From assembly GCF_003391055.1 (NCBI RefSeq), contig NZ_QUAJ01000001.1, positions 62,001-126,000 of the forward strand: a stretch of 64,000 nucleotides of DNA. The letters are read 5' to 3'. The notes beneath the pieces are model-generated. The model was given only the letters and a program-made list of their open reading frames with translations, had not been told where the DNA came from and ran no database searches. Source of the stretch: Psychrilyobacter piezotolerans. Its GTDB lineage: Bacteria > Fusobacteriota > Fusobacteriia > Fusobacteriales > Fusobacteriaceae. Both the position numbers and the translations under genes were made by a program. This document shows, piece after piece, positions 6,733 through 53,247 of this stretch. Every line of letters begins with the position of its first letter. Positions within the stretch are counted from its first letter, which is position 1.

Positions 6733-8655
6733 TTAGACTTTTTTAGTATATTCTTTTTCCTCTATTTTTTTCAATACGATTTCTAATTCTTCTGGTTTTC
6801 CATAGTAGTATCCTTGAAAAATTTCTACCCCCATCTCCTTTAACATATTTACCTCTTGTATAGTTTCTGTCCCCTCCACTATCACTTCTAAACCTAAACT
6901 CTTCCCTAACTCAATGATAGTTTTTATGATCTTCATATTTTCAGGACTCTCAAACATGTTTATTACAAATGAACGGTCAATTTTTAAGGTACTTACCGGC
7001 AGTTTCGATAAATAAGAAAGGGAGGAATACCCTGTACCGAAATCATCTATTGAAAAATTAATTCCTATTTTTTTTAAATTATCCATTTTTTCAATACATT
7101 TATCGACATCATCTATAAATGCACCTTCCGTTAGTTCAAAATTGATTCCTTTTAAAGTTCCGTGTTTAGTTATTATCTCCTCTGAAAAATATTTTTTATT
7201 AAAGTGAATGGGAGATATATTTAATGACACAGGAGTTTTTAACCTCACTATATCTTTTTTTACCTGCTCTATTAAAAAATAAGTTAAATCTATAATCAGT
7301 GAAGATTTTTCAGCTATTGGTATAAATATCCCCGGGGAGATATTCCCTTTTTCAGGATGGTTCCACCTCATAAGGGCTTCAAATTCAACCTTTTTAGTTT
7401 TTAGATTTACTTTAGGCTGGTAGTAAATTTTAAACTCCTTATTCTCTATTCCTTTTTTTATCTCATTTCCCAATAGATAGAATGCCCCGTCTCCGTGTTT
7501 TTTTTCAAAATCAAGCTGGTCAAATAAAGTCTTCATTGTAGTTTTTACAGATACATCTTTCTTATACTCCTTAAAAATTTTACAAATAAAGATCTTATAG
7601 TCGTTTTCCTTAGTTTGATTAAACTTATCTAAATTCTCTAAAAATCTTTTTTCTAATTTTATTACTTCATCTGAGTCAACTGAACCTTCTATAACCACTA
7701 AAAATTGATCTCCATTCAACCTTATAATTTGGTCCCCGCTTCTGAACGTTTCTCTCAATATAGAAACCAAAGAAATTATTGCCTTATCTCCTATTTCCAT
7801 CCCAAATTCATTGTTGATATAGGATAGATCTACTATATCAAATAGCCCAAAATATATATTCTGATTGATTTTAGAAGCATTATTATAATTTATCAGTTCA
7901 TTTAATTTTTCCATACCCTTTTCTCTTTTCAAAACTCCTGTAAGGTTGTCAAAGTTAGATTTTATATAGAGTTCTTCGGTAATTTTTTCTTTCTGGCTAA
8001 GTATTCTTCTGGTAGTAGAAATCAATAAAAGAACTAACAGTATTATTAAAACACCATTTAATATTATATAGGTAAATTTTTCTAAAATTCTTAAACTTAA
8101 ATTTTCCATCTTTATATCTGCACCAGCAATATATTTTCTTCCATCTTTAGATTTCAACACCAGATATATCGACCTGAATCCTCCGCCTTTATCTGTGCTG
8201 TCTATATAATGTATATTTTTATTTTTTAATACATCTATAGTTTCCTTTATGGAATCATCTTCTAAATCTTTAAAATTTACCCAGTAAAGTTCTGTCGGAT
8301 CTCCATTTTTCACCTTATCTATGTATTCCTCAACATCTCCTCCCACTGCTGTATAAGTAGGCATCCCACCTTCATCTATTACGGTAAACAGATAGTCAAC
8401 ATTATTTGCCCTTGACATCTCATTCAAAATTTTTGTTGCTTCCAATGCTTCTTCATCGGTATGTGAATTTTCATCCATACCTTCAAACGTATATTCATCT
8501 CCTAAATAATATGGTATATTTTTTGCCGCCCTGTACAGATTTGAATTTATCGCCTGTAACTCCTTATCTCTCAAATATGAATATCCTAAGTATCCGTAGA
8601 TAAATATTCCTATTGTCAGTAGTACAAAAATTTTCATATTCTGCTTTACCTTCAT
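6733..8655 (-). CDS. membrane GGDEF-EAL protein, probable c-di-GMP phosphodiesterase (640 aa)
   Basis: Two membrane segments (about 8-27 and 195-215) enclose an extracytoplasmic sensor region. The GGDEF domain (about 235-390) is degenerate: the active loop reads RLNGDQF instead of GGDEF, so cyclase activity is doubtful. The EAL domain (about 400-635) looks active, with FEALMRW, the metal-binding ..NLSPIHF equivalent (SLNISPIHF), DDFGTGYSS and the conserved EGTET. Hence the protein probably degrades c-di-GMP and uses the GGDEF part for regulation. The ATG follows GAGGAG by seven bases. It is transcribed separately from the kinase operon but could oppose the cyclase made there. Confidence 0.92.
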   Translation of the reverse strand: MKVKQNMKIFVLLTIGIFIYGYLGYSYLRDKELQAINSNLYRAAKNIPYYLGDEYTFEGMDENSHTDEEALEATKILNEMSRANNVDYLFTVIDEGGMPTYTAVGGDVEEYIDKVKNGDPTELYWVNFKDLEDDSIKETIDVLKNKNIHYIDSTDKGGGFRSIYLVLKSKDGRKYIAGADIKMENLSLRILEKFTYIILNGVLIILLVLLLISTTRRILSQKEKITEELYIKSNFDNLTGVLKREKGMEKLNELINYNNASKINQNIYFGLFDIVDLSYINNEFGMEIGDKAIISLVSILRETFRSGDQIIRLNGDQFLVVIEGSVDSDEVIKLEKRFLENLDKFNQTKENDYKIFICKIFKEYKKDVSVKTTMKTLFDQLDFEKKHGDGAFYLLGNEIKKGIENKEFKIYYQPKVNLKTKKVEFEALMRWNHPEKGNISPGIFIPIAEKSSLIIDLTYFLIEQVKKDIVRLKTPVSLNISPIHFNKKYFSEEIITKHGTLKGINFELTEGAFIDDVDKCIEKMDNLKKIGINFSIDDFGTGYSSLSYLSKLPVSTLKIDRSFVINMFESPENMKIIKTIIELGKSLGLEVIVEGTETIQEVNMLKEMGVEIFQGYYYGKPEELEIVLKKIEEKEYTKKV

Positions 8656-36665: not shown

Positions 36666-36698
36666 AAAAAATCCCTCCTAAAATTAGGAGGGATTTTT
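36666..36698 (-). terminator. terminator after the NhaC-family gene
   Basis: AAAAATCCCTCCTA-AAAT-TAGGAGGGATTTTT; a long, nearly symmetric stem. Confidence 0.9.
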
Positions 36699-36707
36699 AT
36701 CTTTTTT

Positions 36708-38123
36708 CTATACTTCTGCTTCTGCTTCTACCTTTTTCTTTTCTATCTTTTCAATAGAGAATCCTGTATACCCATAGATTATAGCTACAATTGGATTGAT
36801 TAAGTTCAAGAAACAATATGGAACATAAGTCCATGGTGCCAGCCCCAGGGTAGCGATCATATATGCCCCGCATGTATTCCAAGGGATCAATGGTGATGTA
36901 AGGGTTCCTGCATCCTCCAATGATCTGGAAAGGTTTTTAGGGTGTAATCCTTTTTCTTCATAGGCACCTTTAAACATTCTTCCAGGCACAACTATGGCAA
37001 GATACTGGTCTCCAGCTACTGAGTTTACAAAAATTGGTGTTAATATAGTTACTAATATTAAGTTTCCAGTAGTATGTGCCACAGATAAAATCTTCAGTGC
37101 TAAAGTTTCTAACATTTGTGTTTTTTCCATTATTCCACCTAAGATCATGGCACAAATAATTAATGAAACAGTCCACATCATAGAGTCTAGTCCTCCTCTA
37201 TTTAATAGAGAGTCTACCATTTCTAACCCTGATTCACCTTCGTATCCATAGTGTAAAGTCGAAAATACCGTAGCTAATGATGCTCCTTGGAAGATCATTG
37301 CAGCTATTCCACCTAGGATAGCTCCACCGAATAATCCGGGTATTGCCGGAACTTTCATTATTACTGCCCCGATTACAATAACCGGTACTAATAATAGTAG
37401 TGGGCTGATATTAAAGTTTCCACTTAGAGTGCTTAATATTCCGTCGATCATCTCTGTATTTAATGCTGCTCCTGTATATTTAGTCCCGATAAATCCAAAT
37501 AAAATTATAGATATGATGAAACTAGGTACTGTTGTATACAGCATATGTTTAATATGAGTAAATAAATCTGTCCCAGCCATTGCCGGTGCTAAGTTCGTCG
37601 TATCCGATAATGGTGATAATTTATCCCCCATATATGCTCCGGAAATAATAGCACCTGCTACTATATGTCTAGGTATTCCCAGTCCTTCTCCTACACCAAT
37701 AAGTGCGATACCAACTGTTGCTGCTGTTGTCCATGACGAACCGGTAGCCACCGATACAATAGCACATATAATAAGAGTTGCCGGTAAAAATATTCCCGGT
37801 GACAAGATCTTTAATCCATAAAAGATCATAGTTGGTACTACACCAGATTGAATCCAAGTTCCTACTACCATTCCGATTATCATAAGAATTATAATTGCAC
37901 CTAAAGCCATCTTGATAGTTTCAACTACTCCTTCTTCTATCTCATTCCATGTGTAGTTCAGACCAAATATAGCTACTCCTGCTGCGAAAAATGCCGATAC
38001 TAAGATAGGTATGTGTACATCAATGTGTGCAATTTGAATTGCATAAAATAAACTCCCTATTAAAAATAACAACGGTATCAGTGCGTACATCAGTGTCGTT
38101 TCCTTTTTCATCTTACTCCCCAT
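36708..38123 (-). CDS. NhaC-family antiporter, probable lysine transporter (LysW-type, 471 aa)
   Basis: NhaC superfamily membrane protein with about 12 segments; VATGSSWTTAATVG, GAYMGDKLSPLSDTTNLA and VNSVAGDQYLAIVVPGRMF are typical. It sits behind a lysine riboswitch (38201-38414). NhaC-like proteins with that riboswitch were predicted by comparative genomics to be lysine transporters (LysW), so I favour lysine uptake over Na+/H+ exchange. The start at 38123 lies eight bases after GGAGG. It is downstream of orr but has its own promoter. Confidence 0.85.
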   Translation of the reverse strand: MGSKMKKETTLMYALIPLLFLIGSLFYAIQIAHIDVHIPILVSAFFAAGVAIFGLNYTWNEIEEGVVETIKMALGAIIILMIIGMVVGTWIQSGVVPTMIFYGLKILSPGIFLPATLIICAIVSVATGSSWTTAATVGIALIGVGEGLGIPRHIVAGAIISGAYMGDKLSPLSDTTNLAPAMAGTDLFTHIKHMLYTTVPSFIISIILFGFIGTKYTGAALNTEMIDGILSTLSGNFNISPLLLLVPVIVIGAVIMKVPAIPGLFGGAILGGIAAMIFQGASLATVFSTLHYGYEGESGLEMVDSLLNRGGLDSMMWTVSLIICAMILGGIMEKTQMLETLALKILSVAHTTGNLILVTILTPIFVNSVAGDQYLAIVVPGRMFKGAYEEKGLHPKNLSRSLEDAGTLTSPLIPWNTCGAYMIATLGLAPWTYVPYCFLNLINPIVAIIYGYTGFSIEKIEKKKVEAEAEV

Positions 38124-38156
38124 AATCAATTCCTCCTGATTTTTTTATTTATAAGT

Positions 38157-38197
38157 AACAAAAAGAGCTATCGATAACACTATCAATAACCCCCAAC
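38157..38197 (-). terminator. expression platform of the lysine riboswitch
   Basis: Minus strand: GGGGGTTATTGATAGTGTTA followed by TCGATAGCTCTTTTTG. ATTGATA pairs with TATCGAT and is followed by CTTTTT, a terminator; the T-rich 3' strand of the aptamer stem lies just upstream and could switch. Confidence 0.65.
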
Positions 38198-38200
38198 AAT

Positions 38201-38414
38201 AAAACTTAAATAAAGTCTATGCTCAAAATCATTTAATAGCACATCACCAATTTTATATGGTGACAGTCTTATGGATCTTATCCATAATCCCAACACAAAG
38301 AATTTTGACTCTTTTCTTCGCATTTCGGCAAATTTACCTTTCATTCTAGGATCAACGCTTGTCATGACTAACCTATAATTACTCTTTAATATTTGCAACC
38401 TCTATCTAAATTTT
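38201..38414 (-). ncRNA. lysine riboswitch (L box)
   Basis: The minus strand shows the conserved lysine aptamer blocks in order: AGAGGTTGCAAA with AAAGAGTAATTATAGG (38375-38403), GGTAAATTTGCCGAAATGCG near 38325-38345, then TTGTGTTGGGATTATGGATA and AAGACTGTCACC near 38265-38300. The closing stem P1 pairs AAAATTTAGATAGAG (38400-38414) with CTTTATTTAAGTTTT (38201-38215) over 15 positions including G-T. A 71-codon frame across it is not a gene. It should switch off the NhaC-type gene when lysine is plentiful. Confidence 0.9.
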
Positions 38415-38429
38415 TCTTTTCTGAAAGTT

Positions 38430-38458
38430 ATTCTATAATAATTTATTAATTCTGTCAA
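38430..38458 (-). promoter_or_regulatory. promoter of the lysine riboswitch transcript
   Basis: Minus strand TTGACA (38458-38453), 17 bases, TAGAAT (38435-38430). Transcription would start about eight bases before the aptamer. It lies within three bases of the orr stop. Confidence 0.8.
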
Positions 38459-38460
38459 TT

Positions 38461-39525
38461 TTAATTAAACACTTTTTTTACATAGGGTGATGTGGTTAAC
38501 TGCAAAAGGGAACCATAATCTAACTTAAATTCCACTATATCTCCTACCTTATATTCCCTTTTTGAATCGGTTACATCCAGCACCAAATGATCACTACTGG
38601 CACCTAATATTATTAATTTTTCATCCATTGCTTCTAAGTTAGACTGGTCTACATCTTGTTTTCCAATGGCTAATATAGCACGTTTTCTCTTTCCCCTGTC
38701 GATAAATACAGGTTTTTTCCCAAAAGCATTGAGCCCAATTTCTCCCACTGGATAGGACTCCTTTTCTTTCAGTTCTATTATCTCTACCTCTAATTTTACA
38801 CTGTCATAGAAGCACCCTTCTAGATTTTTTCCATAGGCTGTTCCCCTCCCAAAGATAAGGGCTTCTCCCAACCTTAGGTTATTTATTTTTGGCGGCATCT
38901 TCTTCTTCCACAAAAGATCTAAACTACTGGAATTCCCTCCTGAGATAATATTCAATTTTAAATCATATTTTTTCTCTATTAAATTCGCAATTTTTTCTAA
39001 TTGTTCTAAATTATCGAAGCTGGGGATGATCCCACCATAACATGTGAGATTCACACCTATCCCCTCTAATTTAATATTTTGCATAGAACTTATCTGATCC
39101 ATATAGCTCTCTACATCTTCAGGCAGGATTCCCTCTCTGAGGTCTCCTAATTCAAGCATCAGAATAATTCTGTGGACTCTATATTGTTTTCCTGCCTCCT
39201 CATTTAAAAGAGCTATAGTAGATATTTCACTGTTTAAACTTATATCCACATGTTTTACCACTTCTTTTATCTGGGAACTCATAGGCAGACGGATCATTAC
39301 CTTGGGAACATCTAAGCTTTCATATTTTTTTAAATTTTCTACCCTGGAATCTCCTAAATATTTTACTCCTCCTTCCACTAATATCTTAGCTACCTCAATA
39401 TTTCCAGAAAAAACTTTGGTTATTCCCACTACATCTATCTGGGATTCCCTGCATTTTTTTGTCAAAACTTTTACATTTTTTCTAATTTTATCCAAATCAA
39501 CCACTACCCTTGGGTATTCAGTCAT
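38461..39525 (-). CDS. orr: ornithine racemase Orr, copy 1 (354 aa)
   Basis: PLP fold-type III racemase converting L-ornithine to D-ornithine, the substrate of the aminomutase. EYPRVVVDLDKIRKNV, then VVGITKVFSG (PLP lysine), VKYLGDSRVEN, GVNLTCYGGI and ISGGNSSSLDLL follow the Orr/YhfX pattern. Last gene of the main ornithine operon; its ATG overlaps the glmL stop (ATGA) with GAGGAGGTGG upstream. A second copy at 49971 is closely similar (10 differences in the first 60 residues). Confidence 0.92.
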   Translation of the reverse strand: MTEYPRVVVDLDKIRKNVKVLTKKCRESQIDVVGITKVFSGNIEVAKILVEGGVKYLGDSRVENLKKYESLDVPKVMIRLPMSSQIKEVVKHVDISLNSEISTIALLNEEAGKQYRVHRIILMLELGDLREGILPEDVESYMDQISSMQNIKLEGIGVNLTCYGGIIPSFDNLEQLEKIANLIEKKYDLKLNIISGGNSSSLDLLWKKKMPPKINNLRLGEALIFGRGTAYGKNLEGCFYDSVKLEVEIIELKEKESYPVGEIGLNAFGKKPVFIDRGKRKRAILAIGKQDVDQSNLEAMDEKLIILGASSDHLVLDVTDSKREYKVGDIVEFKLDYGSLLQLTTSPYVKKVFN

Positions 39526-47744: not shown

Positions 47745-48935
47745 TTACAAATCTATATTGTCCAATACTTCATCCTTTATCTCTATAATTTCATTATCTT
47801 TTTTATATACTCTAGGAACTCTTTTACTTACATTGCATAGGACTTCATAACTTATGGTCCCCAATATATCTGCTATATCCTCTGGAGTCACTCTATTGTA
47901 CTGGTCTTCCCCGAATAAGATAACTTCATCTCCTCCATGTACATCTAAACCTGTTATATCCACTACAAATTTATCCATACAGATGGCTCCAGCTACTCTC
48001 GCCACTGCATTTTTACCCTTGATGATTACTTTTCCCTTATTACTGAGTCCACGGCTGTATCCATCTGCATATCCGATTGGTATCAATCCTGTCCGGGATT
48101 CTCTGTTTACCGTATATGTAAGTCCATAACTTATTGATTCCCCTTTTTCCAGTGTTCTTATATGATAGATCTTACTGTGCAGGGACATCACCTGTTTCAA
48201 ATCTATCACCTTATCTTTCTCCTGTACTTCCGATGGATAGTGTCCGTACATGAGGAGTCCTGCCCTCACCATATCATAGTTAAATTCCGGCAGATCTAAT
48301 ATGGCTGCACTATTTGACACATGTTTTATGGGTATTTCTACCCCTAGTTTTTTTAGTTCATCTATTATGTACGTAAATTCCTTCACCTGTTTTATGGTGT
48401 ACCATTTATCTGCTTCATCAGCCACTGCAAAATGGGTGTAGACTCCCTCTAAATATAAGTTATCCAGCTCACTTATCTCTTTTATAACTTCTACAGTCCT
48501 ATATTTTATAGGTAATCCTACCCTATGCATTCCCGTGTCTACATTTATGTGTACCGCAATTTTTTTCCCGTGTAATTTAGCCAATTCATTTAATACTTTG
48601 GCCTGTCTAAGGGAGTATATTGTAGGAGTTATATCCCATTGAATTACCTCTTCTAAATTAGCATCTGGAGTATATCCCAGCAATATAATCTGTATATCCT
48701 TATATGAATTCCTTATCTCTATAGCTTCCGACAATACTGCCACTGCAAATTTATTTATATTCTCTGCTTTTAGTGTGTCGATCACTCCCAGAGCTCCATG
48801 ACCATAGGCATCAGCTTTTATTACCGCCATGACTTCGGTTCCTGGTTTTATGTGTTTTTTTATCTCCCTCATATTGTGTCCCAAATTATCTAGATTGACC
48901 TCTACCCAAACAGGTCTTTTGAGATTTAATTCCAT
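47745..48935 (-). CDS. alr: alanine racemase, copy 1 (396 aa)
   Basis: PLP fold-type III racemase. VMAVIKADAYGHGAL holds the PLP lysine; HINVDTGMHRVGL, HVSNSAAIL, SYGLTYTV (catalytic tyrosine on the opposite face) and IGYADGYSRGL are standard. First gene of the main operon. OrtAB releases D-alanine, so an alanine racemase here makes sense to recover L-alanine for catabolism; supply of D-alanine for cell wall is the textbook role. Copy 2 is at 51979 (6 differences in the first 60 shared residues). Confidence 0.92.
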   Translation of the reverse strand: MELNLKRPVWVEVNLDNLGHNMREIKKHIKPGTEVMAVIKADAYGHGALGVIDTLKAENINKFAVAVLSEAIEIRNSYKDIQIILLGYTPDANLEEVIQWDITPTIYSLRQAKVLNELAKLHGKKIAVHINVDTGMHRVGLPIKYRTVEVIKEISELDNLYLEGVYTHFAVADEADKWYTIKQVKEFTYIIDELKKLGVEIPIKHVSNSAAILDLPEFNYDMVRAGLLMYGHYPSEVQEKDKVIDLKQVMSLHSKIYHIRTLEKGESISYGLTYTVNRESRTGLIPIGYADGYSRGLSNKGKVIIKGKNAVARVAGAICMDKFVVDITGLDVHGGDEVILFGEDQYNRVTPEDIADILGTISYEVLCNVSKRVPRVYKKDNEIIEIKDEVLDNIDL

Positions 48936-49539
48936 TTTTTCTTCACACTCCTGATATCTTTTTACATATATATTTTATTTATTTTTTATATCATACTCAC
49001 AACATATTAAATATAGGAACATAACAATTTTTCTATTTAAAACAAGTGTTATAAATAAAGGTCTCTCAATTATTATTAGTGAATTTATATCTCTTATAAA
49101 TTTACTGAATATATCTTTCACTTTTATATTAATACATTATCCTTCTAAATCCAAACTTTTTGTCTAAAAATTAATCATTTAAGTGTTTTCTAATATACTT
49201 TTAACGCTAAATCATATATAAAATATATGAATTACATAGTATTTCCTAAGAAATTCCTCATTTTAAAAATTAAAGTTATTCTTCATCATTCAAAAAATGA
49301 ATGACTCCTCATTTTTAGGTTAAAAAAATAGTCAGCACTTTTCTACCCCAGCCCCCATCTGGATGATTTTTTTGATATAATATAACCATGAATACCACTA
49401 TTAAACTAAAAAAATAATTCTTTTATTGATGCTCCTCATAGAGCTATTATTTTTTCCTCTACTCAATAATAGTCTACTTCTTTTTTTTTTTATATCATAA
49501 TTCATTATATTCATCCTGTATATGCCGACCCATTCATTT

Positions 49540-49865
49540 CATTCATCCTGGGAATGTTTAAGTTTCGATCCACTACCTTATTTTTTTCTTCTTTTGAGAA
49601 ATTATAAGTGCTTTTTTTAAATACAACCCACTCTATTTACCAAATATATGTCATCATTTATGCACTATTTACCACAAGAATACTTAAATTCCATTCTACT
49701 GTTGTGATTTTTTCTTTTTTTAAGAAATTATAAGTATTTTTTTCAAATATAACTCACCTTATTTATAATATATATATAACTGTATTATTTCTATTTATTT
49801 TATTCATCCTAGAGAAGTTTGAATCCCATTCTACTACCGTGATTTTTTTCTTCTTTTGAGGAAGT
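49540..49865. repeat. degenerate tandem repeat, about 130-bp unit, two and a half copies
   Basis: Landmarks recur in order: ATCCACTACCTTA / TTCCATTCTACTGTTGTGA / TCCCATTCTACTACCGTGA, each followed by a T-rich run with TTCTT.TTTT and then GAGAAATTATAAGTGCTTTT / AAGAAATTATAAGTATTTTT / GAGGAAGTG. TTCATCCT begins units near 49542 and 49804. Confidence 0.65.
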
Positions 49866-49872
49866 GTAATTC

Positions 49873-49911
49873 AAAAAAGGTTATAGACGGATGCCGTCTA
49901 TAACCTTTTTT
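49873..49911 (-). terminator. terminator of the alr2-arginase2-orr2 operon
   Basis: AAGGTTATAGACGG-ATG-CCGTCTATAACCTT with A and T runs outside. The arms are nearly those of the terminator at 53366-53400. Confidence 0.9.
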
Positions 49912-49970
49912 TTATTATGTTTTATTAGGTTGTTTCAAAAGTATTTTTTATATAAATAGAACAGCACACT

Positions 49971-51032
49971 TTACCATGTTTTTTTTACGTAGGGTGATGT
50001 GGTTAACTGCAGAAGGGAACCATAATTCAGCTTAAATCCAACTATATCTCCTACCTTATATTTTATTTTTGAGTCAGTTACATCCACCACCAAATGATCA
50101 CTGCTGGAACCTAAGATTATTAATTTTTCATCCATTGTTTCTAAATTGGAATGATCTACATCTTGTTTTCCAATAGCTAGTATAGCCCGCTTTCTCTTAC
50201 CTCTATCGATAAATACTGGTTTTTCTCCAAAAGCATTGACTCCAATTTCTCCCACTGGATAGGACTTCTTTTCTTTTAATTCTATTATCTCTACCTCTAA
50301 TTTTACACTGTCATGAAAGCAGCCTTCCAGATCTTTTCCATAAGCGGTTTCCCTTCCAAAAATAAGAGATTCTCCCAACCTTAGATTATTTATTTTTGGC
50401 GGCATATTATTGTTCCACAAAAGATCCAAACTACTGGAATTTCCACCTGATATAATATTTAATTTTAAATTATATTTTCCCTCTATTAAATTCGAAATTA
50501 TCTCTAATTTTTCCAAATTCTCAAAGCTGGGAATGATCCCACCATAACACGTGAGGTTTACACCAATCCCTTCTAATTTAATATTTTTCATAGAATTTAG
50601 CTGATCCATATAACACTCTACATCTTCAGGCAGGACCCCTTCTCTCAGGTCTCCTAATTCAATCATCAAAATAATTTTATGAACTTTACCTTGTTTTCCT
50701 GCCTCCTCATTTAAAAGGGCTATGGTAGATATTTCACTGTTTAAACTTATATCCACATGCTTTATCACTTCTTTTATCTGGGATCTCATAGGCAGACGGA
50801 TCATCACTTTGGGAACATCTAAATTTTTATATTTTTTTAAATTTTTCACCCTGGAATCTCCCAAATATTTTACCCCTCCTTCCACCAAGACCTTGGCCAT
50901 CTCCAGGCTTCCAGAAAAAACTTTGGTTACCCCCACTACATCTATCTGGGATTCATAACATTTTTTTGTCAAAAATTTTACATTATCTCTGATCTTTTCC
51001 AAATTCACTACTACTCTTGGGTATTCAGTCAT
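49971..51032 (-). CDS. orr: ornithine racemase Orr, copy 2 (353 aa)
   Basis: Same family and motifs as the copy at 38461 (VVGVTKVFSG with the PLP lysine, GVNLTCYGGI, ISGGNSSSLDLL). All motifs are intact, so it should be active. Its ATG overlaps the arginase 2 stop (ATGA). The C terminus ends ...SPYVKKTW rather than ...SPYVKKVFN. Placing arginase directly before ornithine racemase gives arginine to D-ornithine in two steps within one small operon. Confidence 0.92.
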   Translation of the reverse strand: MTEYPRVVVNLEKIRDNVKFLTKKCYESQIDVVGVTKVFSGSLEMAKVLVEGGVKYLGDSRVKNLKKYKNLDVPKVMIRLPMRSQIKEVIKHVDISLNSEISTIALLNEEAGKQGKVHKIILMIELGDLREGVLPEDVECYMDQLNSMKNIKLEGIGVNLTCYGGIIPSFENLEKLEIISNLIEGKYNLKLNIISGGNSSSLDLLWNNNMPPKINNLRLGESLIFGRETAYGKDLEGCFHDSVKLEVEIIELKEKKSYPVGEIGVNAFGEKPVFIDRGKRKRAILAIGKQDVDHSNLETMDEKLIILGSSSDHLVVDVTDSKIKYKVGDIVGFKLNYGSLLQLTTSPYVKKTW

Positions 51033-51886
51033 AGAGTTATCTTCTTCTCTATTAATTGAAGTAACTCATCTACATATTCAGACGTTTCCATTCCCTTCTC
51101 ATATATCGGATTATATTCCACTATATCTATAGATGTTACAGATGCTGTATCTATCATCTCCGACACCAGAATTTTACCCATTTCACGGCTGAGCCCTCCT
51201 GGAACAGGAGTTCCAACAGCTGTTACCTCTGCAGGATCTATTCCATCCAGATCAAAACTGATATGCAGGTTTCTATCTCTAAAGAATTCTTTTACCTCTC
51301 CTAAAGCTTTTTCAAACCCCATCTCTGCTATCATATCCCAAGTATAGTTTTTGATTCCCAATTCATCTATCAGTTCTTGTTCCTTCTCATCTATATCCCT
51401 GGTCCCAAATAGGATTACATTTTCTTTTTTTACCTTAGTCCCCTTATATAAACAATCCACCAATTTAGAATGCCCATACCCTATGGATGCAGCTAGTGGC
51501 ATTCCATGTATGTGTCCAGATTCACTTATCTCAGGAGTATTCATATCCCCATGAGCATCCATCCATAATATTCCTATCTCTTTCTCTTTGGATACCCCGG
51601 CTATACTGCCTATGGCTATGGCATGATCTCCACCTAAAGTGATGGGAAAATTTCCATCCTTGACTATCTTATTTATGCTCACAGCTAATTTTTCACAGGT
51701 TTTTGCCACTGTATTCAGATATTTAGCATTCTTTCTTGAAAAATCTTCCACTTCTCTCTCTACTCCTAACACCTCTATCTTATCCCTGTATTTTGGATAT
51801 CGGTCTATAAAGTTGTCTACACCAAATTCCAATCCGCACCTGTTAGCTCCAAAGTTTAACGGTATCCCCACTATTTTTGTTTTCAT
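51029..51886 (-). CDS. rocF: arginase, copy 2 (285 aa)
   Basis: Close paralogue of the arginase at 43753 (9 differences in the first 60 residues), with the same metal motifs (LGGDHAIAIGS, MDAHGDMNTPE, SFDLDGIDPAE). Unlike copy 1 it begins with ATG, preceded by AAAGGAGATGA. Middle gene of alr2-arginase2-orr2. Confidence 0.94.
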   Translation of the reverse strand: MKTKIVGIPLNFGANRCGLEFGVDNFIDRYPKYRDKIEVLGVEREVEDFSRKNAKYLNTVAKTCEKLAVSINKIVKDGNFPITLGGDHAIAIGSIAGVSKEKEIGILWMDAHGDMNTPEISESGHIHGMPLAASIGYGHSKLVDCLYKGTKVKKENVILFGTRDIDEKEQELIDELGIKNYTWDMIAEMGFEKALGEVKEFFRDRNLHISFDLDGIDPAEVTAVGTPVPGGLSREMGKILVSEMIDTASVTSIDIVEYNPIYEKGMETSEYVDELLQLIEKKITL

Positions 51887-51978
51887 TAAATCATCTCCTT
51901 TGTTTTCTTTTTTTCATCAATTATCATGTATGATAATTGGCGGCTAAGTTTTTAGTTTTTATTACTGCGAAACATGGG

Positions 51979-53181
51979 TTAAAAATTTAAATCTATCTTG
52001 TCCAGCACTTCATCCTTTATCTCCATTATCTTATTCCCTTTTTTATACACTCTAGGAACCCTTTTACTTACATTACATAAAATTTCGTAACTTATGGTCC
52101 CCAGCATATCCGCCAGATCTTCCGGAGTTATTTTATTGTATTCATCCTCCCCGAATAAGATAACTTCATCTCCTCCATTTATATCCATATCTATATCTGT
52201 AATATCTACTACAAATTTATCCATGCAGATAGCCCCTGCTACCTTTGCCAATCTATTTTTCCCTTTGATAATTACACTTGCTTTATTACTGAGTCCACGG
52301 CTGTATCCGTCGGCATATCCGATCGGTATCAACCCCAGCCTGGAGTCTTTGTTTACCGTATATGTCAGTCCATAACTTATTGATTTACCTTTTTCCAATG
52401 TTCTTATATGATAGATCTTACTATGGAGAGACATCACCGATTTCAACTCTATCACCTTATCTTTCTCCTGTACTTCCGATGGATAGAGTCCATACATGAG
52501 GAGTCCTGCCCTTACCATATCATAGTTAAATTCCGGCAGGTCTAATATAGCAGCACTATTTGACACATGTTTTATAGGAATTTCTACCCCCAATTTTTCC
52601 AACTCATCTATTATATATTTAAATTCTTCCACCTGTTTTATGGTATACCCTTTGTCCGCTTCATCAGCTACTGCAAAATGAGTATAAACCCCCTCCAAAC
52701 ATAAATTATCCATCTCGCTTATCTCTTTTATAACTTCTACAGTCCTATATTTTATAGGTAATCCTACCCTGTGCATCCCTGTATCTACACTTATATGTAC
52801 AGCAATTTTTTTCCCATGTGATCCAGCTAATTTGTCCAATATTTCAGCCTGTCTAAGGGAATATATTGTAGGAGTTATATTCCATTTAATTACCTCTTCT
52901 AAATTAGCATCTGGAGTATATCCCAGCAATATAATCTGTATATCCTTATCTGAATTCCTTATTTCTATAGCTTCTGACAACACTGCCACTGCAAATTTAT
53001 TTATATTTTCTGATTTTAGTGTCTCTATCATTCCCAAAGCACCATGACCATAGGCGTCGGCTTTTATTACTGCCATAACTTCAGTTCCTGGTTTTATGTG
53101 TTTTTTTATCTCTCTCATATTGTGTCCTAAATTATCTAGATTGATCTCTACCCAAACAGGTCTTTTAACATCTAATTCCAT
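51979..53181 (-). CDS. alr: alanine racemase, copy 2 (400 aa)
   Basis: Paralogue of the racemase at 47745, with IKADAYGHGAL, HISVDTGMHRVGL, HVSNSAAIL, SYGLTYTV and GYADGYSRGL all present. It has a short insertion in DITDIDMDINGGDEV where copy 1 has DITGLDVHGGDEV. I start at the ATG at 53181, ten bases after GGGAG; the GTG nine bases earlier is too close to that site. It heads the duplicated set alr2-arginase2-orr2. Confidence 0.92.
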   Translation of the reverse strand: MELDVKRPVWVEINLDNLGHNMREIKKHIKPGTEVMAVIKADAYGHGALGMIETLKSENINKFAVAVLSEAIEIRNSDKDIQIILLGYTPDANLEEVIKWNITPTIYSLRQAEILDKLAGSHGKKIAVHISVDTGMHRVGLPIKYRTVEVIKEISEMDNLCLEGVYTHFAVADEADKGYTIKQVEEFKYIIDELEKLGVEIPIKHVSNSAAILDLPEFNYDMVRAGLLMYGLYPSEVQEKDKVIELKSVMSLHSKIYHIRTLEKGKSISYGLTYTVNKDSRLGLIPIGYADGYSRGLSNKASVIIKGKNRLAKVAGAICMDKFVVDITDIDMDINGGDEVILFGEDEYNKITPEDLADMLGTISYEILCNVSKRVPRVYKKGNKIMEIKDEVLDKIDLNF

Positions 53182-53247
53182 TTTTTTCACACTCCCAATA
53201 TCTTTTTATCCCATATATTTATTACAAAGAAAGGTACCTCGACCGGC

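What the first reader, a model, noticed from the sequence alone, without database searches (positions are those of the whole stretch)
38157..38458. Lysine riboswitch in front of an NhaC-family gene
Promoter (TTGACA-17-TAGAAT), L-box aptamer blocks and a terminator-like platform precede the NhaC gene. This re-labels the 'Na+/H+ antiporter' as a probable lysine transporter, in line with earlier LysW predictions. It stands immediately behind the ornithine operon, and lysine analogues such as ornithine are its chemical neighbours.
Basis: partly seen in the sequence, partly recalled or inferred. Interest (0 to 1): 0.6.

Follow-up and report, generated by a model that had tools for sequence, protein, structure and literature searches.

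The report
Lysine-sensing RNA switch controlling NhaC gene
This is a standard lysine-sensing RNA switch that most likely shuts off a probable lysine uptake gene when lysine is plentiful; the kind is well known, and the only unusual point is that it sits at the tail of an ornithine-fermentation operon.

Summary
On the minus strand, 38229-38412 is a full-length lysine riboswitch aptamer (Rfam RF00168, 98.9 bits, E 4.6e-25). A promoter (38458-38430) precedes it, and an intrinsic terminator (38194-38163) and an NhaC-family gene (ATG 38123, end 36708) follow. Folding indicates a transcriptional OFF switch: before the terminator's 3' arm is made, P1's 3' strand pairs with the terminator's 5' arm; with P1 formed, the terminator can form. 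The genome holds four other lysine riboswitches (dapF, lysC, the lysine-fermentation operon, and a second, Tet(35)-like NhaC-superfamily gene). Lysine is the likely substrate: relatives of this NhaC lie beside lysine-fermentation genes at five places in Bacillota and Fusobacteriaceae, and nine clostridial relatives carry their own lysine riboswitch. Lysine riboswitches before NhaC genes are described (LysW; C. difficile CD1655), so this is a new member of a known kind. The promoter-aptamer-terminator cassette lies between the ornithine racemase stop codon and nhaC. In the genus it is intact in 5 of 8 genomes, broken in 1 and absent in 2; one other genus has it. I found no sign of ornithine sensing. 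Substrate and ligand are untested.

The parts
38430..38458 (-). Promoter TTGACA-17-TAGAAT; the -35 box begins 2 bases after the ornithine racemase stop codon
   Evidence: kept in the other genomes with the cassette
38229..38412 (-). Lysine riboswitch aptamer (RF00168, full length)
   Evidence: 98.9 bits, E 4.6e-25; junction motifs GAGG..GC, GCCGAA, CTGTCA and G.GCT all present
38163..38194 (-). Intrinsic terminator; its 5' arm is also the partner of P1's 3' strand (antiterminator)
   Evidence: 14-bp stem, T-run; alternative pairing
38132..38137 (-). Shine-Dalgarno AGGAGG, 8 bases before ATG 38123
   Evidence: Sequence
36708..38123 (-). NhaC-family transporter, probable lysine transporter (ORF listed from TTG 38129)
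   Evidence: TIGR00931 494 bits (cut-off 370); NF052307 ArcD 430 bits (cut-off 650, not met)
36667..36698 (.). Palindromic terminator between nhaC and the next gene, T-run on both strands; makes the nhaC unit probably one gene long
   Evidence: + strand; minus-strand sequence
38461..39525 (-). Ornithine racemase Orr, last gene of the ornithine-fermentation operon, directly upstream
   Evidence: NF040742 499 bits (cut-off 480)

Best explanation
It is an L-box (lysine) riboswitch working as a transcriptional OFF switch for one gene, a LysW-like NhaC-family transporter that most likely carries lysine. RNA starts about 6-7 bases after the -10 box. When lysine is scarce, the 3' strand of P1 pairs with the 5' arm of the terminator, so RNA polymerase reads on into nhaC. 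When lysine is bound, P1 is held in the aptamer, the terminator forms and nhaC is silent. No terminator was found between orr and the riboswitch, so read-through from the ornithine operon would pass the same gate. Shown by computation: aptamer, promoter, terminator, alternative pairing, gene family, genomic associations. Inferred: lysine as ligand, polarity in the cell, lysine as substrate, direction of transport, read-through.
For: Aptamer E 4.6e-25, full length. The RNA cut just before the terminator's 3' arm folds, unconstrained, into the antiterminator; the full leader's lowest-energy fold has P1 plus terminator (-65.4 against -60.9 kcal/mol with the antiterminator forced). In truncated RNA the expected fraction of P1 3' strand paired with the terminator 5' arm is 0.72, against a mean of 0.01 with the arm shuffled (0 of 60 as high); own lysC 0.76 and dapF 0.43 behave alike. 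The cassette is kept in 5 of 8 genomes of the genus and in one other genus, G054. NhaC relatives lie beside lysine-fermentation genes at 5 places (L079, L081, L082, L083, L158); the neighbours in L082 are lysine 5,6-aminomutase alpha and beta (928 and 394 bits, over cut-off). Nine relatives chosen by motif all have RF00168 directly upstream. On a 69-row tree the riboswitch label needs at least 7 changes, so it was gained more than once or repeatedly lost within this NhaC family.
Against: No ligand, transcription or transport data. NhaC members can be Na+/H+ antiporters, and the halobacterial ADI-pathway arginine/ornithine exchanger is also NhaC family (PMC5300872, passages); the window protein scores 430 bits on the ArcD model NF052307, below its cut-off of 650. 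In G057 and G058 the gene stays next to orr without any riboswitch, which would also suit an ornithine carrier. The simple duplex test against shuffled downstream sequence is weak (0.091), and 5 of 16 nhaC leaders show little of the predicted antiterminator (G055 0.19, G061 0.04, L088, L090, L092 0.00). In G054 and G050 shuffled arms often did as well (11 and 7 of 60).
Confidence: 0.8

Rival explanations
1. The riboswitch senses lysine, but the NhaC protein is a basic-amino-acid carrier or exchanger (ornithine, arginine, lysine) that serves the ornithine operon; lysine only signals that cationic amino acids are plentiful.
For: nhaC is next to orr in all 8 genomes of the genus (Orr cut by a contig end in G058) and in G054, also where the riboswitch is gone. 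Second-best model is the arginine/ornithine antiporter ArcD. The operon holds arginase.
Against: The ArcD cut-off is not met (430 of 650 bits). Relatives that sit beside lysine-fermentation genes score much the same on both models. Nine relatives chosen by motif pair with a lysine riboswitch, and no ornithine gene was detected near them.
Confidence: 0.25
2. The NhaC protein is a true Na+/H+ antiporter for pH control, induced when lysine is low because lysine decarboxylation then cannot buffer the cell.
For: Family name TIGR00931, 494 bits; this alternative is set out for C. difficile CD1655 in PMC11477304 (passages).
Against: Relatives lie beside lysine-fermentation genes at 5 places, which pH control does not explain.
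Confidence: 0.12
3. The aptamer has drifted to sense ornithine (L or D), so the switch reports on the ornithine operon.
For: Position behind the ornithine operon; in G054 a second lysine-class aptamer of 73.6 bits stands before ord, the first gene detected of its ornithine operon.
Against: All four junction motifs are canonical in the window, in G054 ord and in the genome's lysC and dapF riboswitches. A PMC search for 'ornithine riboswitch' gave 0 papers.
Confidence: 0.04

Closest known systems
Lysine riboswitch before lysW / nhaC (COG1757), e.g. C. difficile CD1655 (PMC5584792, PMC11477304)
   Same: Same aptamer class before an NhaC-superfamily gene
   Different: Here the cassette is inserted at the 3' end of an ornithine-fermentation operon, and the genome has a second, Tet(35)-like NhaC gene under another lysine riboswitch. 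I did not compare the window protein with CD1655 itself.
B. subtilis lysC lysine riboswitch (transcription attenuation; PMC6614840, passages)
   Same: Antiterminator without ligand, terminator with ligand
   Different: Controls a transporter gene rather than lysine synthesis
Lysine riboswitch before lysine-catabolic genes (F. nucleatum kal; PMC5584792, passages)
   Same: Same aptamer class; this genome also has one, before kal-kce-kdd-kamA-(two more ORFs)-kamD-kamE
   Different: Those are reported as positively regulated; the window's platform looks like an OFF type
Haloarchaeal NhaC-family arginine/ornithine exchanger (PMC5300872; the ArcD model NF052307 is taken here as its counterpart, which is my inference)
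   Same: Same superfamily; 430 bits on NF052307
   Different: Below the curated cut-off of 650 bits; the haloarchaeal gene is clustered with arcABC, which was not found among the neighbours identified in the window

Membership tests
Lysine riboswitch (RF00168) | Match to the covariance model over the gathering score, full length | tested here: met
   98.9 bits against 30, positions 1-182 of 182
Lysine riboswitch (RF00168) | Conserved five-way junction nucleotides around the lysine pocket | tested here: met
   All four junction motifs present; conserved positions taken from PMC3764141, passages; mapping of the numbering by eye
Lysine riboswitch (RF00168) | Expression platform coupled to P1 | tested here: met
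   P1 3' strand shared between P1 and antiterminator; 0.72 against 0.01 shuffled
Lysine riboswitch (RF00168) | Selective binding of L-lysine | not testable with these tools
   Needs in-line probing or ITC
NhaC family (TIGR00931) | Score over curated cut-off | tested here: met
   494 bits, cut-off 370
ArcD arginine/ornithine antiporter (NF052307) | Score over curated cut-off | tested here: not met
   430 bits, cut-off 650
LysW lysine transporter | NhaC-superfamily gene directly under a lysine riboswitch | tested here: met
LysW lysine transporter | Carries lysine | not testable with these tools
   Only indirect: lysine-fermentation neighbours of relatives

The most novel reading that the evidence does not exclude
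In this lineage lysine-class riboswitches have been recruited to ornithine fermentation itself: a promoter-aptamer-terminator cassette gates read-through from the ornithine operon into a cationic amino-acid carrier, and in the related genus G054 a second lysine aptamer stands before ord at the detected start of the ornithine operon, so that lysine level decides whether ornithine is imported and fermented.
Probability: 0.15. Interest if true: 0.5.

Novelty: new member of a known kind. Interest (0 to 1): 0.27.

Why it matters
It adds a clear comparative case for what riboswitch-linked NhaC proteins carry, a question that PMC11477304 calls open: relatives of the same protein lie either under a lysine riboswitch or beside lysine-fermentation genes, and Romboutsia lituseburensis has one of each (L099 and L079). 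That makes the lysine-transporter assignment directly testable with one uptake assay. The loss of the whole cassette in two sister genomes and its breakage in a third give natural variants.

Tried and rejected
Ornithine-sensing variant: rejected for lack of any change in the junction motifs. A diverged second riboswitch before the window's own ornithine operon: none, even at E up to 5 in 30000-56000. Lysine riboswitch at the head of ornithine operons in general: of the five operons whose upstream part I held (window/L187, L188, L182, L183, L153) only G054's L153 has one. Polarity of the genome's own kal riboswitch and of G054's ord riboswitch: no clear terminator found, left open. The tree label 'none' rests for most rows on a five-motif screen, not on Rfam; besides the window, Rfam was run on L088, L090, L092, L094-L097, L099, L100, L150-L161, L163, L164, L168, L170 and L177-L190. 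From the tree I left out L070, L071, L072, L098, L102, L107, the loci after L107 other than seven named in the script, and hits under 38% identity, under about 1150 bases or under 400 aa. L082 and L137 had three of five motifs but were not put to Rfam. G056's broken leader was left out. Neighbours of other NhaC copies (Fusobacteriaceae and Tepidibacter/Alkalithermobacter loci) were mostly housekeeping or unrelated genes and gave no further hint.

Full report
What is there. The window's only Rfam match over a gathering score is a full-length lysine riboswitch on the minus strand, 38229-38412, 98.9 bits, E 4.6e-25. In order on that strand lie: the ornithine racemase gene orr (38461-39525; NF040742, 499 bits, cut-off 480); two bases later the -35 box of a TTGACA-17-TAGAAT promoter (38458-38430); the aptamer; an intrinsic terminator (38194-38163); an AGGAGG; and an NhaC-family gene from ATG 38123 to 36708 (TIGR00931, 494 bits). 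Behind nhaC a palindromic hairpin with T-runs on both strands (36667-36698) separates it from a sodium:solute symporter gene with its own promoter-like site, so the riboswitch probably governs nhaC alone.

How it most likely works. The full leader's lowest-energy fold has P1 plus terminator (-65.4 kcal/mol; -60.9 with the antiterminator forced). The RNA cut before the terminator's 3' arm folds, without any constraint, so that P1's 3' strand pairs with the terminator's 5' arm. In such truncated RNA the expected fraction paired is 0.72, against a mean of 0.01 with the arm shuffled, none of 60 as high. This is the OFF logic of the B. subtilis lysC switch (PMC6614840, passages), and the genome's own lysC and dapF leaders behave alike (0.76 and 0.43). 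Results against: a plain duplex test against shuffled downstream sequence gives only 0.091 for the window, and of 16 nhaC leaders tested 11 reach 0.4 or more and 5 do not (G055 0.19, G061 0.04, L088, L090 and L092 0.00); in G054 and G050 shuffled arms often did as well.

Ligand. The four junction motifs that surround the lysine pocket (GAGG..GC, GCCGAA, CTGTCA, G.GCT) are all present, as in the genome's lysC, dapF and kal riboswitches; the conserved positions are from PMC3764141 (passages), matched by eye. Nothing points to ornithine.

The genome. It has five lysine riboswitches: before dapF and lysC (families), before the lysine-fermentation operon kal-kce-kdd-kamA-(two more ORFs)-kamD-kamE (kal, kce, kdd, kamA, kamD and kamE pass their NCBIfam cut-offs), before a 578-aa Tet(35)-like NhaC-superfamily gene (L168; 156 bits, below that model's cut-off), and the one in the window. 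So two quite different NhaC-superfamily proteins are under lysine riboswitches in one genome.

Relatives. NhaC is next to Orr in all 8 genomes of the genus, Orr being cut by the contig end in G058. The promoter-aptamer-terminator cassette is intact in 5 of 8 (window genome, G055, G059, G060, G061), lacks the aptamer's 3' half but keeps promoter and terminator in G056 (48.2 bits), and is wholly absent in G057 and G058. G054, another genus of the family, has the same order orr-promoter-aptamer-terminator-nhaC with unlike leader sequence, and in addition a lysine-class aptamer (73.6 bits) before ord, the first gene detected of its ornithine operon.

What the protein carries. Relatives at 58-64% identity sit beside lysine-fermentation genes at five places: L079, L081, L082, L083 (Bacillota) and L158 (G048, same family); in L082 the two genes before it are lysine 5,6-aminomutase alpha and beta. 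Nine clostridial relatives, chosen by motif and therefore not a rate, all have RF00168 directly upstream. Romboutsia lituseburensis has one copy of each kind (L079, L099). On a 69-row tree the riboswitch label needs at least 7 changes. I take this as good indirect evidence for lysine. Against it: the ArcD arginine/ornithine model scores 430 bits, though below its cut-off of 650; a haloarchaeal NhaC-family protein is the demonstrated arginine/ornithine exchanger according to PMC5300872 (passages); and the gene stays with orr even without the riboswitch.

What is known. Lysine riboswitches before NhaC genes, called lysW, are described in PMC5584792 (passages) and for C. difficile CD1655 in PMC11477304 (passages), which says that the function remains unknown and gives lysine transport and pH control as the options. 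The 2003 paper cited there for this was not held. A search for two or more of riboswitch, ornithine aminomutase, ornithine racemase and Psychrilyobacter gave five papers, none of which by title or abstract start deals with this arrangement; 'ornithine riboswitch' gave none. The verdict is a new member of a known kind; only the place at the tail of an ornithine operon, and G054's second aptamer, are worth a note.

Noticed in passing
L153:18402-18584 (-), genome G054: A lysine-class riboswitch (73.6 bits) directly before ord, the first gene detected of the ornithine-fermentation operon; junction motifs intact, platform unclear.
   Followed up: partly
L150:3858-4017, genome G056: A broken lysine riboswitch: promoter, 5' half and terminator kept, 3' half (with P1's 3' strand) missing; terminator stem weaker. 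Metagenome assembly, so unconfirmed.
   Followed up: partly
L168:5766-7502 (-) with riboswitch 7626-7800 (-): Second NhaC-superfamily gene (Tet(35)-like, 578 aa) under a lysine riboswitch in the window's own genome.
   Followed up: partly
window 47745-53190 (-): Alanine racemase, arginase and ornithine racemase genes occur a second time upstream of the ornithine operon (86-89% identical to the first set).
   Followed up: no
L170:1796-1978 (+): Lysine riboswitch before the lysine-fermentation operon of the same genome; polarity (ON or OFF) could not be settled by folding.
   Followed up: partly
L162:11620-13995 (+): Single ORF joining a lysine/arginine/ornithine decarboxylase-like N-terminal part to an arginase-like C-terminal part.
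   Followed up: no
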